This document shows positions 7,924 through 15,527 of a stretch of 64,000 bases of DNA, one piece after another; within the stretch, counting starts at the first letter, position 1, and each line of letters starts with the position of its first letter. The DNA lies in the NCBI RefSeq assembly GCF_000202835.1, contig NC_015186.1:3567501-3631500 (forward strand), given 5' to 3'. The stretch is from Acidiphilium multivorum AIU301. Lineage in GTDB: Bacteria > Pseudomonadota > Alphaproteobacteria > Acetobacterales > Acetobacteraceae. A program made the translations under genes and the position numbers. The notes under the pieces are model-generated. The model was not told where the DNA came from, made no database searches, and saw only the letters and a program-made list of their open reading frames with translations.

Positions 7924-9003
7924 CTTGCCTATCCGGTTGACTCCCATACCTACTAGATCTAGTGTTGGGCATGGATGTCCTGGCCCGTGAAGACCTGCCG
8001 TTCCCGCAGTCTCTGCCGGAATTCCAGCGTATTTTCCCGAACGACGCGGCCTGTGCCGCCTATCTCGAAAGCGCCCGCTGGAATGGAGGGTTCGCCTGCC
8101 CAAGGTGCGGCGTCGTTGGCGAGCCGTTCCGTTTCGAGGCGCGCCCGGGCGTTCTGCGCTGCCGGGCCTGTCGCAAAGACGTAAGCCTGATGGCTGGGAC
8201 CGTTATGGAACGCAGTCACACGCCGCTGTCGACTTGGTTCTGGGCGGCTTACTTGATCGCCAGCCAGACGCCCGGAATGTCGGCCGTCCAATTTCAGCGG
8301 CAACTCGGCCTGTCGCGCTACGAGACCGCCTTCGGCATCCTTCATAAGCTGCGCGCCGGGATGGTGCGCCCCGAGCGCGACAAGATTGGCGACACGCCGC
8401 AAGAACACGTCGAAGTGGATGAAACGTGGGTTGGAGGACGAACCCGAGGCGATGGACGGGGTGTCCATCACAAGGTTCTCGTCGCCTGTGCCGTGGAGGT
8501 GCGCCACCGGAAACCGGGAACCAAGCTCGACAATCGGAAAGACGGTCGCTACGCGGGACGCGTTCGTCTCGCTGTTGTCCCCGACCGTAGCGCCAATTCG
8601 CTCTGCGGATTCGTCGAAAACGCCGTTGCTCCCGGATCGCTGATCGTTACCGACGACTGGAGCGGCTATGCCGGTCTCGGAAGGCGCGGGTTCGACCACC
8701 ATGCAATCGCCGAATGCGGCGACCCGGAGGTGGCAGAAGAATTCCTGCCGATCGTCCACTTGGTCTTTACCAACCTGAAGACCTGGATCAACGGCATCCA
8801 TCACGGGGTCAGCGCCAAACATCTACAAGCCTACCTCAATGAATTCACGTTTCGGTTCAACCGGCGCCTCTATCCCTTCAACGCGTTCCGCTCGCTGCTC
8901 GGAATCGCGGGTAGGGCAGCCGCACCAACCTTTGACGAGCTTTATTCCGGGGAATGGACACACCCTACATTTAGTGGGTGTGGGTAACAACCGGATAGGC
9001 AAG
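7924..9003 (+). mobile_element. IS1595-family insertion sequence with 8-bp target duplication
   Basis: The 1080-base element is bounded by perfect 16-base terminal inverted repeats, CTTGCCTATCCGGTTG at 7924-7939 and its complement at 8988-9003, which continue imperfectly inward. The 8-base sequence CATTGTTC occurs directly outside both ends (7916-7923 and 9004-9011), a target-site duplication of the size known for IS1595 elements. The stop codon of the transposase lies at the inner edge of the right repeat. The left copy of the target duplication contains the start codon of the leftward FkbM-type gene. Confidence 0.95.
7971..8987 (+). CDS. IS1595 family transposase
   Basis: The 338-aa protein begins with a helical region, then a zinc ribbon (CPRCG...LRCRACRKD), then the ISXO2-like DDE-type catalytic domain. 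VDETWVGGR supplies the first Asp, IVTDDWSGY the second, and NLKTWINGIHHGVSAKHLQAYLNEFTFRFNRR the conserved C-terminal block. All family landmarks are present, so the gene looks intact. ATG at 7971 was chosen; GTG at 7962 is an alternative. No strong ribosome binding site is visible. Confidence 0.92.
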   Translation: MDVLAREDLPFPQSLPEFQRIFPNDAACAAYLESARWNGGFACPRCGVVGEPFRFEARPGVLRCRACRKDVSLMAGTVMERSHTPLSTWFWAAYLIASQTPGMSAVQFQRQLGLSRYETAFGILHKLRAGMVRPERDKIGDTPQEHVEVDETWVGGRTRGDGRGVHHKVLVACAVEVRHRKPGTKLDNRKDGRYAGRVRLAVVPDRSANSLCGFVENAVAPGSLIVTDDWSGYAGLGRRGFDHHAIAECGDPEVAEEFLPIVHLVFTNLKTWINGIHHGVSAKHLQAYLNEFTFRFNRRLYPFNAFRSLLGIAGRAAAPTFDELYSGEWTHPTFSGCG

Positions 9004-9494: not shown

Positions 9495-11474
9495 TCAGCC
9501 GGAAAGCAGCGGGGCAGGGGCCTCCGCCCGCGCATCCACCGCCAGCGGCGCCGCGCCCGCCGCCGTCAGAAACGCCGCGATCCGGTCGAACTCCGCCGGC
9601 GGCCGTGTCGCATCCCCCGCATCGCCGGGCGGAACAAAAATCACCGTTTCATAGCGCGCGCGGGAGAGCAGCACCCGATAGGTGTTCACCTGCCAGGACG
9701 CGGCCTCCTTATGGCGGATCTCCTCCCACCGCGTGCCGCGAAAGCGCCGCGCCAGCCAACCATCCCCGGCGCGCGGGCGGATCAGGTCGCCGCCCCAGCA
9801 CAGGCCGACATTGTCGATCTCCAGCCCCTGGCAGGCATATTGCGTCGCCGGCGCCTCCAGCGCGTCCGAGGCGCGCACGTCCGGCCAGGCATTGAGGAAC
9901 CAGCTCGCCACCGCCTGCCGGTCCATATGCGGAAAATCGGCCGACAGCCCCTCCGCCCGCAGCCGCTTCGCCCCGGCGCTGCACACGAGCCCGGCCCGCC
10001 GCGTCCCGCGCGAGGCCCCCCGCAGCGCCGCCCGCATCGCGTCGAGCGACCGTGTGATCCGGAACGGCACCCCGCCCGCGGCAGAAGCGATCCCCGCCGC
10101 CATCTCCGCCCGCCCGTCCAGCACCGCGTCGATCCACGCCGCGGCGGCGGCCGAGCGCACCTGCCGCACGCTCACATCGAGATGCAGCGCCGGATCGATC
10201 TCCATCCCCGCCGGCGCCGCATCCGCCAGCCGCCGCGCCGGATCGGGATGGCCGATCACCCCGTCCGGCCCGACGATCCGCCAGCCCGGCCGCCGCGCCA
10301 GCGCCTCGCCCCACGAGGCCAGCCCCGCCTCGCCGGTATTGATCTCCTGTCCGTTGCCCACCAGCGCCACGATCGCCGCCCCGCCCTCGTGCCGCGCCAT
10401 GATGTCGAGAAACAGCCCGGCCTCGCTGTCATCGAGCTGGAACTTGCGCTGCCCGAAGGCCGCGTCCCACGCCCGCTGCGCCTCGTCGAACACGATCACC
10501 CGCTCATGCGGCGCCGCCGCGCGCGGCACGTTGTCGCGCAGGAAGCCGAGCAGCGGCTGGATCGCGCTGTCCAGCCGGTGGTTCGCCGCCCGCAGCGACA
10601 CGCCGGGCCCCTTCGCATCCCGCGCCAGCGCCTCGCGCAGCACATGCACGAGCGGCAGGTTGCCGGTCAGGAACGCCGCAGGTGCGGCGCTGCGGAACAC
10701 CGTGTTCAGCCCGCACAGCGTCTTGCCCGCGCCCGGAATCCCGGTGACGAACACCACAACCCGCTCGCCCGCCGCCAGCGCCCGGTCCACCGCGCGGCCG
10801 ATCGCCTCGGTCGTCCGCGTCAGGTTGCTCACATCCGCCCGCGCCGCGGCGATCTCCTCCACCCCGTGCCGGCGATACAGCATCGTCGCCGCCTCGACGA
10901 TGGTCGGCACCGGCCGATACGCCCCCGCCTCCCAGGCCGCCGCGTCGATCGCCGCCGCCGGCGCCGGCAGCATCGCCTCGGTCGCCGCGATCAGCCCGCC
11001 GAGCGATGCGGCATTCGCCTCCATCACCGGCATGATCGGCTGCGCCAGCAGCGGCGGGGTCGCCGCGCGCGCCGGCGCGTCCGGGGCGACCAGCACCGGC
11101 ACGATCGGATGGCGCCGGCTCTCGGCGTGAAAATCGAACAGGTCGAGCGCGTAATCCTCCACCTGCAACCGGTCGGCATTGGCGAACCGCGCCGCCCCGA
11201 TCTTGAATTCGAGCACGAAAATCCCGCGCTCCCCCAGCACAACGGCATCGATCCGCCGCCCCAGCCGGATCAGCGGATATTCCAGCATCACCCGCCAGTC
11301 CCCGCACCCGGCCAGCGCCGCGGTCAGGATCGGCAGCTGCGCCCGCCAGGCGCGGATCTGCTCCTCATGGTTGAGCGCATGGGTCTCGACCAGCCGGCGG
11401 GCGAGGGCGCCGATCACCGCCTCCGGCGCCGCCGCGGCGAGCTGCCCCGCCGTGCCGGACCACCACGCCCTCAC
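9495..11474 (-). CDS. DUF2075-type DNA/RNA helicase with N-terminal PD-(D/E)xK nuclease-like domain
   Basis: The 659-aa protein combines two modules. Residues about 60-115 carry a nuclease-like core: EYPLIRLGRRIDAVVL with D76, then FVLEFK with E89 and K91. From about residue 235 a superfamily 1 helicase follows: Walker A GIPGAGKT (245-252), Walker B VIVFDEAQ (D330, E331), VALVGNGQEI, and a C-terminal motif RVLLSRARYETVIF typical of UvrD/DUF2075 proteins. It probably acts on nucleic acid with ATP hydrolysis. The physiological role is unknown; repair or defence are both possible. The GTG start at 11474 lies 7 bases after the hemF stop, so the two are probably cotranscribed. Confidence 0.8.
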   Translation of the reverse strand: MRAWWSGTAGQLAAAAPEAVIGALARRLVETHALNHEEQIRAWRAQLPILTAALAGCGDWRVMLEYPLIRLGRRIDAVVLGERGIFVLEFKIGAARFANADRLQVEDYALDLFDFHAESRRHPIVPVLVAPDAPARAATPPLLAQPIMPVMEANAASLGGLIAATEAMLPAPAAAIDAAAWEAGAYRPVPTIVEAATMLYRRHGVEEIAAARADVSNLTRTTEAIGRAVDRALAAGERVVVFVTGIPGAGKTLCGLNTVFRSAAPAAFLTGNLPLVHVLREALARDAKGPGVSLRAANHRLDSAIQPLLGFLRDNVPRAAAPHERVIVFDEAQRAWDAAFGQRKFQLDDSEAGLFLDIMARHEGGAAIVALVGNGQEINTGEAGLASWGEALARRPGWRIVGPDGVIGHPDPARRLADAAPAGMEIDPALHLDVSVRQVRSAAAAAWIDAVLDGRAEMAAGIASAAGGVPFRITRSLDAMRAALRGASRGTRRAGLVCSAGAKRLRAEGLSADFPHMDRQAVASWFLNAWPDVRASDALEAPATQYACQGLEIDNVGLCWGGDLIRPRAGDGWLARRFRGTRWEEIRHKEAASWQVNTYRVLLSRARYETVIFVPPGDAGDATRPPAEFDRIAAFLTAAGAAPLAVDARAEAPAPLLSG

Positions 11475-11481
11475 GCCGCCA

Positions 11482-12387
11482 TCACGGCCATTTGACCTCG
11501 GGCGGCATGCTCATCAGGATCGCCTCGGTATTGCCGCCGGTCTTCAGCCCGAACGTGGTCCCGCGGTCATAGAGCAGGTTGAACTCGACATACCGCCCCC
11601 GCCGCACCAGCTGCGCCTCGCGCTCCTCCGGCGTCCACGCCTCGTCCATCCGCCGCCGCACGATCGCGGGATAGGATTCAAGGAACGCGAGCCCGACATC
11701 GCGGGTAAAGGCGAAATGAAGCTCCGGCTCGGTCTCCAGATAATCGTAGAAAATCCCCCCGGCACCCCGCGTCTCGCCGCGATGCGGCAGGTAGAAATAC
11801 TCGTCGCACCACTTGCTGAAGCGCGGGTAGTAGTCGGGATCGTATCTGTCGCACGCCGCCCGGAACGCGTCGTGGAACAGCGCCGCGTCCTCCTTCGCCG
11901 CCGCCGTCCCCGGCTGCAACGGGGTGAGATCGCCGCCGCCGCCGAACCATCCCTTCGTCGTCACGATCATGCGCGTGTTCATGTGCGCCGCCGGCACCCG
12001 CGGCGAGTGCATGTGCGCCACCAGGCTGATCCCCGCCGCCCAGAAGCGCGGGTCCTCCGCCGCGCCGGGAATGTTCTTCGCGAAGTCCGGGCTGAACGCG
12101 CCGCCCACCACCGAGATGTTCACCCCCACCTTCTCGAACACCCGGCCGCGCATCAGGCTCATCTCGCCGCCGCCCTCCAGCCGGTTCTGCCCGTCCGGCG
12201 CGCGCGTCCAGGGCGTGCGGGCGAAGCGGCCCGGCGCGCGGTCCGCCAGCATTCCCCCATGCGCGTCCTCGATCGCCTCGAAGGCGGCGCAGATGCGGTC
12301 GCGCAGCGTGCGGAACCACTCGCTCGCCGCCGGTTTCAGCGCCTCGTGGGCGGGGGCGGGCGGATTCGGTGCGGAACGATCATTCAT
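11482..12387 (-). CDS. hemF: Oxygen-dependent coproporphyrinogen-III oxidase
   Basis: HemF carries out the O2-dependent oxidative decarboxylation of coproporphyrinogen III to protoporphyrinogen IX in haem synthesis. Family signatures are all present: [57 protein letters not shown], and [34 protein letters not shown] at the C-terminus. The start at 12387 (MNDRSAPN) gives 301 aa, the usual size. An upstream in-frame start at 12480 would add 31 residues of unlikely composition. The gene is transcribed leftward with the nuclease-helicase gene and diverges from the bc1-like operon. Confidence 0.95.
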
Positions 12388-12513
12388 GCCCGACTTATAC
12401 AGCATCGCCGCCCCCCTTCCAGCGCGCGCAACCCCTCCCGCCGGCCGGACGGGATTGAATTTTATGCGGTTTGCGGTCATCCAGAGGCAACAGGTTGGTC
12501 ACGGAGACAGCTC
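12388..12513. promoter_or_regulatory. Divergent intergenic region between hemF and the bc1-like operon
   Basis: This 126-base gap must hold promoters for hemF (leftward) and the cytochrome operon (rightward). It contains an A+T-richer stretch TTGAATTTTATGCGG near 12454 and a GGAGA element at 12503-12507 that can serve as ribosome binding site for the small membrane protein. No classical operator was recognised. Confidence 0.4.
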
Positions 12514-12717
12514 ATGGCAACGCAAGCGGATGCCGGCGCGCATGGCGGCGGACAGGGAGACGGCGGGCAGCTCGATTCCCTGCGGATCATTTTTGCCACG
12601 ATTTCGGTGATGGGGCTCGTCGTCCTGCTCTGGTGCTTCGCCGCCGCCCTCGCGCCCTCCCGCTCCGGGCCAGCCCCCGCGCCGCTCGCCCCGGCCATGA
12701 TGAACCAGTTGCGCTGA
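12514..12717 (+). CDS. Small single-helix membrane protein in the Rieske position of a bc1-like operon
   Basis: The 67-aa protein starts MATQADAGAHGGG, has one membrane helix (SLRIIFATISVMGLVVLLWCFAAAL) and ends in a Pro/Ala-rich tail. It stands where petA (Rieske iron-sulfur protein) normally stands, one base before the cytochrome b start. Its N-terminal layout (MAT-x-AD, short linker, one transmembrane helix) resembles the anchor of alphaproteobacterial Rieske proteins. The two Cys-x-His cluster-binding boxes and the whole extrinsic domain are absent. It may be a Rieske remnant or an unrelated small subunit. The frame is open upstream for a long way, but ATG at 12514 has the GGAGA site. Confidence 0.65.
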   Translation: MATQADAGAHGGGQGDGGQLDSLRIIFATISVMGLVVLLWCFAAALAPSRSGPAPAPLAPAMMNQLR

Positions 12718-12718
12718 C

Positions 12719-13906
12719 ATGAGCACCGACACGAAACCCGGCTGGTTCGAGGCCCGCCTGCCGCTCTGCGCCGTCTATCGCCGCCACTGGAGCGATGGTC
12801 TGGTCCCCGCCAGCCAGCCGCTCTCCTGGTCGGTCGGCCCGCTGGTCGGCGTCGCCCTCGCGGTGCTGACGCTCTCGGGCATCTGGCTCGGCCTCGCCTA
12901 CCAGCCGAGCCTGTCCGGCGCCGCGCTGTCGATCGCCGACTACACCCGCAACGTCCCCTATGGCTGGCTGATCCGCGACCTGCACCGCGTCGGCACCACC
13001 ATGCTGTTCGGCGTGCTGTTCGTCGAGCTGTTCCGCGGCGCCTTCTACGGCACCTACCGCAACGGCCGCGAACTCGCCTGGGTCATCGGGATCGTCCGCC
13101 TCTTCGCCTGCATGGCGGTCGGCTTCCTCGGCTTCGCGATGACCGGCAGCCCCGCCGCCCAGGGCGCGCTGCTGATCATGCAGGCGCATCTCGCGGCACT
13201 TCCGCTGGTCGGCCATCTGGTCGGCCCCGCCTTTCTCGGCGGCGCCGGGCTCAATGCCGCCACCGGCCCGCGCATCGCGATGGCGCATGAGGCGATCGGC
13301 TTCCTCGTCCTGCTGATCGCCGCCCTCACCGTGGTCGCCTCGCGCGCCGCCCCGCCCGCCAACCCCGACGGCATCGCCACCCCCGACCCGCGCGACCTGC
13401 TGCCCCGCTCCGCCCTGGCCGGCCAGTATTTCACCGCCTTCCTGATCTTCGCGCTGATCTTCGCCGCCATCCTCGCCTTCGCCCCCGGCCTCGGCACGCC
13501 GAAAACCCCGCTCCTGCCGGCGGCGCTGGCCATCCCGGTGCGGGTCACCCCGCCCTGGTACCTGCTGGTCTTCCACGGCTTCGCCCGCATGGGCGGCTCG
13601 CCCGGCGGCGGCCTGCTGCTCACCGTCGCGGCCTTCCTGCTGCTCGGCGCGCTGCCCTGGCTCGATCGCGGCACGGTGGCGAGCGGCCGCTACCGCCCGG
13701 TCTATGCCGGCTTCCTGATCCTGCTCGCGGTCGATCTCGTCCTCCTCGGCATCGCCGCCAGCGAGCCCGCGCGCGGCCTCTGGCCCGCGGTGACCGACAT
13801 CACCGCGATCTACGCCTTCGCCCATTTCCTCATCATCACGCCGCTGGTCACCATGCTGGAAACCCCGCACGAGGTGCCGGCGCGGCTTTCGCGGAGGACC
13901 GCCTGA
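12719..13906 (+). CDS. Degenerate cytochrome b of a bc1-type complex (bL ligands kept, bH ligands lost)
   Basis: The 395-aa polytopic protein aligns with cytochrome b throughout: YGWLIRDLHRVGTT, ELFRGAFYGTYRNGRE, RIAMAHEAIGF, TPPWYLLVF and ALPWLD match the canonical helices B, D, ef loop and helix F regions. Of the four haem-ligating histidines, H89 and H190 are present. The residues 14 positions further, where the second pair belongs, are E103 and T204. The quinol-site motif PEWY reads PPWY (278-281), and the PWGQ motif after helix C is replaced by TGSP. By homology the kept pair is the bL pair and the lost pair the bH pair. It overlaps cytochrome c1 by one base and is surely cotranscribed. 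Confidence 0.85.
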   Translation: MSTDTKPGWFEARLPLCAVYRRHWSDGLVPASQPLSWSVGPLVGVALAVLTLSGIWLGLAYQPSLSGAALSIADYTRNVPYGWLIRDLHRVGTTMLFGVLFVELFRGAFYGTYRNGRELAWVIGIVRLFACMAVGFLGFAMTGSPAAQGALLIMQAHLAALPLVGHLVGPAFLGGAGLNAATGPRIAMAHEAIGFLVLLIAALTVVASRAAPPANPDGIATPDPRDLLPRSALAGQYFTAFLIFALIFAAILAFAPGLGTPKTPLLPAALAIPVRVTPPWYLLVFHGFARMGGSPGGGLLLTVAAFLLLGALPWLDRGTVASGRYRPVYAGFLILLAVDLVLLGIAASEPARGLWPAVTDITAIYAFAHFLIITPLVTMLETPHEVPARLSRRTA

Positions 13907-14633
13907 TGCGGCGCCTGCTTGCCACCTGCCTCACCGCCGGGGCGCTTCTCGCCGCCGGCCCGGCCCTCGCCAGCGGCAACGGCTTCGGCTTCGACTCGCT
14001 GTTCGGCGGCTACAGCCAGGCCGCGCTGCAGACCGGCTTCGCCGTCTACCGCGCCGACTGCGCGAGCTGCCACGGGCTCAGCCTCGTGCACTACCGCGAT
14101 CTCGGCGGCATCGGCCTTTCCGAGAAGGACATCGCGGCGATCACCGCGCAGATCAGCCAGCCGGACGGCACCGACGCCCACGGCAAGCCGCATATGGTCA
14201 AGGCCACGCCGGACGACGCCATCACCTGGTCCTACCCCGATGCGAAGGCCGCGATCGCCGCCAATCACGGCGCCCTGCCGCCGGACCTCTCGCTGTTCGA
14301 GGCCGGCCATCCGCGCGGCGCCGCCTATGTCCAGTCGCTGCTGCTCGGCTACCGCAAGGCCCCGCCGAACCTGACCCTGCTGCCGAACCACTATTACAAC
14401 GTCGCCTTCCCCGGCGGGCAGATCGCGATGCCCCCGGCGCTGAAGCCCGGCTCCGTCACGCTGGCCGACGGCAAGCAGCCCGACGCGGCGCAGATGGCGC
14501 ACGACGTCGCCGAATTCCTCGCCTGGACCGCCGATCCCAAACTGGAGGACCGCAAGGTCAGCGGCCTCGGCGCCATCCTCTTCCTGCTCGTCCTCGGCGG
14601 GCTCGGCGCCGTCGTCTTCCGCCGGCGGCGCGC

Positions 14634-14637
<4 letters not shown>
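13906..14637 (+). CDS. petC: Cytochrome c1, membrane-anchored haem c subunit
   Basis: The 243-aa protein has an N-terminal signal peptide (cleavage likely after GPALA), the haem c motif CASCH near residue 52, HYRDLGGIGLSEKD, PPDLS, and FPGGQIAMPPAL with the Met expected as sixth haem ligand. A C-terminal transmembrane helix with a basic cytoplasmic end (FRRRRA) follows. All c1 landmarks appear intact, in contrast to the partner cytochrome b. It would sit in the periplasm anchored to the inner membrane and pass electrons to a soluble or membrane cytochrome c or oxidase. Confidence 0.9.

Positions 14638-15520
<883 letters not shown>

Positions 15521-15527
<7 letters not shown>

What the first reader, a model, noticed from the sequence alone, without database searches (positions are those of the whole stretch)
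12719..13906. bc1-type cytochrome b that has lost exactly the bH haem site
The sequence aligns with cytochrome b over its whole length, yet the histidines 14 residues after H89 and H190 are replaced by E103 and T204. In mitochondrial and bacterial cytochrome b, the first His of each pair (H83/H182 in bovine numbering) binds haem bL and the second (H97/H196) binds haem bH. So one complete haem site is kept and the other removed, not random decay. PEWY is changed to PPWY and the PWGQ motif to TGSP, so neither quinone site looks normal. The frame is intact, overlaps an intact c1 gene and shows no stop. A bL-only quinol or redox complex that cannot run a Q-cycle would be new to me.
Basis: partly seen in the sequence, partly recalled or inferred. 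Interest (0 to 1): 0.85.

Follow-up and report, generated by a model that had tools for sequence, protein, structure and literature searches.

The report
Respiratory cytochrome b missing one haem
An acid-loving bacterium keeps a trimmed-down version of a central respiratory enzyme that has lost one of its two haem sites and its iron-sulphur head while natural selection still guards the other haem site; the loss itself has already been reported for this genus, but what the leftover complex does is still unknown.

Summary
The only cytochrome b found in this genome (Acidiphilium, probably A. multivorum) keeps both haem-bL histidines (H89, H190) and lacks both haem-bH histidines (E103, T204); PEWY is PPWY, PWGQ is TGSP. 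This is already in print: Degli Esposti et al. 2023 (PMC10715153) report that Acidiphilium lacks the bH histidines and the Rieske gene, and call the complex deranged.

Best reading: a selected, bL-stabilised bc1 remnant that cannot run a Q-cycle, kept mainly as a membrane assembly (about 0.5). A Q-cycle-free redox role remains open.

The parts
12719..13906 (+). petB: bc1-type cytochrome b, 395 codons, both bH histidines lost
   Evidence: AlphaFold model pLDDT 86.6, TM-score about 0.9 to Rhodobacter bc1 cytochromes b
12983..12985 (+). H89 codon, first haem-bL ligand, kept (11 of 11 in the genus)
13286..13288 (+). H190 codon, second haem-bL ligand, kept (11 of 11)
13025..13027 (+). E103 codon in place of first haem-bH ligand (E, T, A, G or Q across the genus)
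13328..13330 (+). T204 codon in place of second haem-bH ligand (T or G across the genus)
13097..13099 (+). R127 codon: arginine on the cytoplasmic half of helix C, invariant in the genus; mostly I or L in four-His relatives (53 of 57 rows)
13187..13189 (+). H157 codon: new invariant histidine in helix cd1; L or A in 57 of 57 four-His rows
13550..13561 (+). PPWY in place of the PEWY motif of the Qo site
13142..13153 (+). TGSP in place of PWGQ
12517..12717 (+). Rieske (petA) remnant: 66 codons with the N-terminal membrane anchor only; the iron-sulphur head is missing; stop one base before petB ATG
   Evidence: tblastn of the stub to the Rieske N-terminus of relative G010, E 5e-5, 44 residues; no Pfam or NCBIfam match
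13906..14637 (+). petC: cytochrome c1 with CxxCH, Met-ligand segment (GGQIAMPP) and C-terminal membrane anchor
14059..14073 (+). CASCH haem-c attachment motif of petC
11482..12480 (-). hemF (oxygen-dependent coproporphyrinogen oxidase), syntenic flank
14634..15527 (+). phosphorylase-superfamily gene (called mtnP here, from recall), syntenic flank; start overlaps petC stop

Best explanation
The locus encodes the membrane part of a former cytochrome bc1 complex: cytochrome b with haem bL only, cytochrome c1, and the Rieske protein cut down to its membrane anchor. It cannot run a Q-cycle (no bH ligands, altered Qo and PWGQ motifs, no 2Fe-2S head). The subunits are kept by purifying selection as a membrane assembly; bL is kept because cytochrome b needs it to fold and assemble, and c1 stays as a membrane-anchored c-type cytochrome. 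Shown: ligand pattern, selection on petB and petC, stub, synteny. Inferred: that the protein is made, carries bL, and acts mainly through its structure or through c1.
For: All 11 cytochromes b of the genus keep H89/H190 and the two bL-side glycines (54, 138), while positions 103, 204, 40 and 124 on the bH side vary. On a tree built without the four ligand columns, the four bL-side positions need 0 changes of residue and the four bH-side positions 11, 6, 2 and 8 (as kept/lost only: 2, 2, 2 and 4). P-side halves of helices A-D are more alike than N-side halves: 0.69 v 0.49 in the genus, 0.56 v 0.46 in g93, 0.71 v 0.61 in four-His rows. dN/dS by direct alignment in 7 genus pairs: petB 0.13-0.49, petC 0.10-0.48; 1350 neutral simulations of petB gave no value under 0.57. 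The Rieske anchor is kept where the head is gone in 6 of 11 genomes. The model keeps the bc1 cytochrome b fold. In yeast, bL is the first haem inserted into cytochrome b (PMC9502982, passages).
Against: No partner is identified. G006 has lost the operon cleanly and still has Complex I and haem-copper oxidase genes, so neither strictly requires it. dN/dS in the window's own pair (0.49) is several times that of its neighbours hemF (0.14) and mtnP (0.08), and the stub's highest value (0.66, 63 codons) is not below the neutral range. The bL side is not untouched: the Arg that meets the bL propionate (role recalled; position 86) is lost in 3 of 11 and in 3 of 6 of g93, and the P-side half of helix C is less alike (0.57) than in four-His rows (0.85). 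New invariant residues (R127, H157, D87) suggest more than a passive scaffold. No expression data were seen.
Confidence: 0.5

Rival explanations
1. A redox-active, Q-cycle-free complex: bL and haem c1 still carry electrons (linear quinol or periplasmic donor to cytochrome c, or bL-bL across the dimer), with the vacated bH side remodelled around R127.
For: Both bL ligands and CxxCH are kept in 11 of 11. R127, H157 and D87 are new invariant residues. G010 keeps all Rieske cluster ligands and the c1 Met together with a bH-less cytochrome b. The window's genome has reaction-centre and haem-copper oxidase genes and no other cytochrome b or c1 was found.
Against: In this genome the Rieske head is gone and PEWY has lost its Glu, so the usual path from quinol to c1 is missing. 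The c1 Met segment is deleted in 3 of 10 complete genes. R127 and H157 are not shared by g93. The bL to c1 distance in solved bc1 is too long for direct transfer (recalled).
Confidence: 0.22
2. Slow decay: the operon is non-functional and on its way out; intact frames are leftover.
For: G006 has lost it cleanly between hemF and mtnP. petB dN/dS exceeds that of hemF in 6 of 6 pairs (one only just, 0.110 v 0.102) and of mtnP in 5 of 5. Cofactor sites differ in how far they are lost across the genus. A single neutral pair can lack stops by chance (0 to 30 of 150 runs per setting).
Against: No in-frame stop in any of 11 petB genes down to 37% identity to the window's. petB dN/dS below all 1350 neutral simulations. 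No change at the four bL-side positions against 27 at the four bH-side ones.
Confidence: 0.2
3. Frames are kept only because petC is coupled to the downstream mtnP (ATGA overlap), so that stops would be polar.
For: petC stop and mtnP start overlap in the window; the two genes also lie very close in G010, G003 and G011.
Against: Would not explain amino-acid constraint or side-specific conservation; mtnP persists without petBC in G006.
Confidence: 0.05
4. A normal bc1 with substitute bH ligands or a second Rieske elsewhere.
For: Six Rieske domains exist in the genome.
Against: No invariant His, Met, Cys or Lys on the N-side halves of helices A-D in the 11 cytochromes b. Of the six Rieske proteins, two look like arsenite oxidase small subunits (by eye) and one like nitrite reductase small subunit NirD; the other three (frames of 430, 423 and 130 residues) were judged from frame length only.
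Confidence: 0.02

Closest known systems
Deranged bc1 complex of acidophilic Acetobacteraceae (Degli Esposti et al. 2023, PMC10715153)
   Same: Same genus and same loss: both bH histidines gone and the Rieske gene reported missing; a second acidophile genus (Acidocella in the paper) also affected.
Canonical alphaproteobacterial cytochrome bc1 (Rhodobacter, Paracoccus)
   Same: Fold of cytochrome b (TM about 0.9, 25-27% identity), bL ligands, c1, gene order.
   Different: No bH ligands, no PEWY Glu, no Rieske head in this genome.
Chloroplast cytochrome b6f mutant lacking a bH ligand (Malnoe et al. 2011, known here only through its citation in PMC10715153)
   Same: A bc-type complex without a normal bH haem.
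   Different: A mutant of one ligand; here the loss is natural and goes with other losses.
Partly haem-loaded cytochrome b, an assembly intermediate in yeast (PMC9502982, passages)
   Same: Cytochrome b carrying only haem bL.
   Different: Transient in yeast; here it would be the final state (inference).

Membership tests
Functional cytochrome bc1 complex (Complex III) | Eight-helix cytochrome b fold | tested here: met
   Model pLDDT 86.6; TM about 0.9 to 5kkz and others
Functional cytochrome bc1 complex (Complex III) | Four histidines for haems bL and bH | tested here: not met
   H89, E103, H190, T204
Functional cytochrome bc1 complex (Complex III) | Qo motif PEWY | tested here: not met
   PPWY in the window; Pro in place of Glu in 11 of 11
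Functional cytochrome bc1 complex (Complex III) | Rieske subunit with 2Fe-2S ligands | tested here: not met
   66-codon anchor stub only; no other bc1-like Rieske recognised (three of six judged from frame length only)
Functional cytochrome bc1 complex (Complex III) | Cytochrome c1 with CxxCH and Met ligand | tested here: met
   Present in the window's petC
Functional cytochrome bc1 complex (Complex III) | Q-cycle activity | not testable with these tools
   Needs biochemistry
Deranged bc1 complex of acidophilic Acetobacteraceae (PMC10715153) | Both bH histidines lost | tested here: met
   11 of 11 in the genus
Deranged bc1 complex of acidophilic Acetobacteraceae (PMC10715153) | ISP lost or altered whenever bH is lost | tested here: inconclusive
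   Met in this genome (stub). As a rule it fails in relative G010, whose Rieske keeps all cluster ligands (CPHRGC, CPCHGA) though nearby residues differ
Deranged bc1 complex of acidophilic Acetobacteraceae (PMC10715153) | c1 intact | tested here: met
   Met in the window; across the genus the Met segment is present in 7 of 10 complete genes, the window's included, and deleted in 3
Deranged bc1 complex of acidophilic Acetobacteraceae (PMC10715153) | Kept to stabilise Complex I (the authors' suggestion) | tested here: inconclusive
   NuoH-type hits in 13 of 13 genomes, including G006 which lost petBC: not strictly required; a supporting role is not excluded

The most novel reading that the evidence does not exclude
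A bc1-derived complex that has abandoned the Q-cycle for a new job: the genus evolved a one-b-haem complex, rebuilt around R127 and H157, in which bL serves a linear electron path (still with Rieske in G010, without it in most others), perhaps suited to acidophiles with a reversed membrane potential (recalled), and feeding c-type cytochromes for an oxidase or the reaction centre.
Probability: 0.2. Interest if true: 0.8.

Novelty: already known. Interest (0 to 1): 0.5.

Why it matters
Cytochrome bc1 is usually treated as all-or-nothing. A lineage that takes it apart piece by piece, with the bL ligands never changed and the bH site free to drift, gives a natural test of which parts are needed for assembly and which for catalysis. 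It also poses a physiological question: 11 of 13 genomes of the genus have only a bH-less cytochrome b and the other two none found, yet reaction-centre genes are found in 8 of 13 and haem-copper oxidase genes in 13 of 13 (not sorted into cytochrome c and quinol types). G010, with bH lost and Rieske kept, is the place to test a Q-cycle-free enzyme.

Tried and rejected
One search typed ligands without turning minus-strand loci round; discarded and redone. In one search the row L023 was read in a wrong frame; it is left out of every count (18 of the 19 outgroup rows are used). The neutral simulation took its substitution spectrum from few four-fold sites and gave unrealistic dN/dS near 3; it was replaced (9 settings x 150 runs, at 0.2 substitutions per site). 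One search also gives petB dN/dS of 0.11-0.55 in 6 pairs aligned through the window protein; the direct alignments (0.13-0.49 in 7 pairs) are preferred. One RNA fold around the stub's start showed nothing (z 0.66). An NrfD-type gene in the genome was thought of as a replacement (alternative complex III); its surroundings were only listed as frames and not identified. A gap between petC and mtnP in G010, which I first took as evidence against coupling, did not hold on recount and is withdrawn. Searches for print on natural bH loss or the PPWY motif: 0 papers each; nothing relevant among the 6 listed.

Three of the 57 four-His rows repeat genomes.

Full report
What is there. Window 12719-13906 (+) is an intact 395-codon petB. 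Residues 89/103/190/204 are H/E/H/T where the 18 usable outgroup rows have H/H/H/H; PEWY is PPWY and PWGQ is TGSP. That the first histidine of each pair binds bL and the second bH is established knowledge (recalled; bovine H83/H182 and H97/H196). Directly upstream, one base before petB, is a 66-codon frame (12517-12717) that aligns with the N-terminal membrane anchor of Rieske proteins and then stops. tblastn of this stub hits the Rieske N-terminus of relative G010 at E 5e-5 over 44 residues; it gave no hit at E <= 1e-3 in the stretches of G003 and G011, whose stubs were recognised by place and by alignment of the anchor. Downstream petC overlaps petB by one base and has CxxCH, the Met-ligand segment and the C-terminal anchor.

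Whose genome. The window lies in a 4.21-Mb genome of 9 contigs, 99.93% complete. A piece of one contig matches an Acidiphilium cryptum JF-5 plasmid at 98.4% over 316 of its 1501 bases. The contig size recalls A. multivorum AIU301 (recall, not tested). The cytochrome b search of this genome gave one match at E <= 10 and the c1 search one match. Six Rieske domains were found: two look like arsenite oxidase small subunits (by eye), one like NirD, and three were judged only from their frame lengths of 430, 423 and 130.

The genus. It has 13 genomes. 11 of 13 have a cytochrome b; all 11 keep H89 and H190 and lack both bH histidines (position 103: E x3, T, A, G, Q x5; position 204: T x7, G x4). None of the 11 has a stop inside. 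The bL-side glycines 54 and 138 are kept in 11 of 11; on the bH side, glycine 40 is Glu in 5 of 11 and glycine 124 is kept only in the window's own protein (side assignment from recalled bc1 topology). Residues invariant in the 11 and in under 20% of the 57 four-His rows include D87, R127, H157 and G194 (G194 is Gly in 11 of 57). The invariant histidines are 89, 157 and 190 only. Against a spotless bL site: position 86 (the propionate Arg, recalled) is V, V and F in 3 of 11.

A second genus. In one search, 262 of 299 family genomes had a match. Of the 53 loci typed, six genomes of genus g93 (perhaps Acidocella, by the paper's description; not tested) show bL histidines in 6 of 6 and bH pairs V/H, H/L, Y/L, Q/A, G/W and W/W; their bL-side glycines are kept in 6 of 6, glycine 124 in 3 of 6. 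The quick tree of 63 rows, built without the four ligand columns, puts g1 and g93 together (SH-aLRT 99), although long branches meet there and the tool warns that such joins may be false. On it the four bL-side positions need 0 changes of residue and the four bH-side positions 11, 6, 2 and 8; counted as kept or lost, 2, 2, 2 and 4. Most of the 27 are thus further drift after loss, not separate losses. Two genomes of another genus (g78: G165, G250) have N in place of the first bH histidine, with PQWY.

Selection. Direct-alignment dN/dS in 7 genus pairs (one of them G000-G010, three among G002/G005/G008): petB 0.13-0.49, petC 0.10-0.48 (two of these on 68 codons), stub/ISP 0.09-0.66. Three four-His petB pairs give 0.20-0.27, two four-His petC pairs 0.20 and 0.46. 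Neighbours in the same genomes: hemF 0.08-0.22 (6 pairs), mtnP 0.045-0.093 (5 pairs). The window's own pair is the loosest for petB (0.49), but neutral simulations of petB under nine settings never gave less than 0.57 in 1350 runs. So selection still acts on petB, more weakly than on the neighbours. The stub's highest value (0.66) is not below that range, so selection on the stub is less certain.

What has been lost. Rieske: all four cluster ligands kept in 1 of 11 (G010: CPHRGC, CPCHGA, with the Ser and Tyr that tune the potential changed to Ala and Phe; their role recalled), head without ligands in 4 of 11 (G001, G002, G005, G008), anchor stub only in 6 of 11 (G000, G003, G004, G007, G009, G011). 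G009 (stub) and G001 (head) are sisters, so the head was lost at least twice; G010's exact place among its five nearest relatives has low support (29). If its Rieske is inherited, bH was lost before the Rieske cluster in that lineage. c1: CxxCH in 11 of 11; Met segment present in 7 of 10 complete genes and deleted in 3 (G001, G009, G011); the G005 gene is cut by the contig end. G006 (99% complete) has no cytochrome b and no c1 hit; hemF and mtnP lie side by side, so the operon is cleanly gone. G012 also has no hit, but at 83% completeness it also lacks hemF, so this may be a gap.

Physiological setting. NuoH-type hits are found in 13 of 13 genomes and haem-copper oxidases in 13 of 13 (cytochrome c and quinol types not told apart); bd oxidase in 12 of 13; reaction-centre genes in 8 of 13, the window's genome included. 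G006 keeps several NuoH-type and three haem-copper oxidase hits without petBC, so neither strictly needs the remnant.

Structure. The model (pLDDT 86.6, 29-sequence alignment, monomer without haem) has the helices of cytochrome b and matches Rhodobacter and mitochondrial cytochromes b at TM 0.8-0.9. Helix 145-159, taken as cd1, holds H157. By topology, R127 lies on the cytoplasmic half of helix C near the old bH site (inference; no coordinates were available).

What is already known. Degli Esposti et al. 2023 (abstract, passages and sections 16 and 17 read) state that Acidiphilium lacks the ISP gene and both bH histidines, that Acidocella is similar, that c1 is intact in acidophilic taxa, that bH-ligand mutations are always associated with ISP mutations, and that the complex may be kept to stabilise Complex I. 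The core observation is therefore not new. In searches (Acidiphilium; motif or bH loss) I saw no report of the anchor stub, of dN/dS, of the bL-side conservation, of a bH-less cytochrome b with a ligand-complete Rieske, or of the clean loss in a Complex I-bearing relative. Of the papers listed I opened passages or sections of only four (PMC10715153, PMC8790237, PMC4013037, PMC9502982); the rest were seen as listings, and most subscription papers and the 2023 paper's supplements were not available.

How it most likely works. Without bH ligands, the PEWY Glu and the Rieske head it cannot run a Q-cycle (from the sequence, given established bc1 chemistry). The side-specific conservation says that bL matters. 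The simplest reason is assembly: in yeast bL is the first haem inserted and its insertion lets the next assembly factor bind (PMC9502982 passages). With the membrane anchors of all three subunits kept while soluble parts decay, a membrane assembly carrying c1 is the most likely product (0.5). The new invariant residues and the G010 case leave room for a linear redox function (about 0.2), and weak constraint plus loss in G006 leave room for decay (0.2).

Noticed in passing
L140 and L144 (genomes G165, G250, genus g78): Another cytochrome b in the family has Asn in place of the first bH histidine (H N H H) and PQWY, with c1 CxxCH downstream; a separate case of partial bH loss.
   Followed up: partly
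L003 / L102 (genome G010): bH-less cytochrome b beside a Rieske protein with all cluster ligands and a c1 with its Met segment: an intermediate that goes against the published rule.
   Followed up: yes
L036 and L037 (G000 contigs C6 and C7): Two very similar Rieske proteins that look like arsenite oxidase small subunits (by eye, recall), one on the 3.7-Mb contig and one on a 65-kb contig.
   Followed up: partly
window 9495-11474 (-): A 659-aa frame with a P-loop-like GIPGAGKT motif and no NCBIfam match at E <= 0.01.
   Followed up: no
window 7962-8987 (+): A gene that looks like an IS1595-type transposase with a zinc-binding N-terminus (by eye, recall).
   Followed up: no
G000:C6:424898-425791 (L169, L171): An NrfD-type gene; such genes are found in 5 of 13 genus genomes. 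Partners not identified, so a link to the missing bc1 function is untested.
   Followed up: partly
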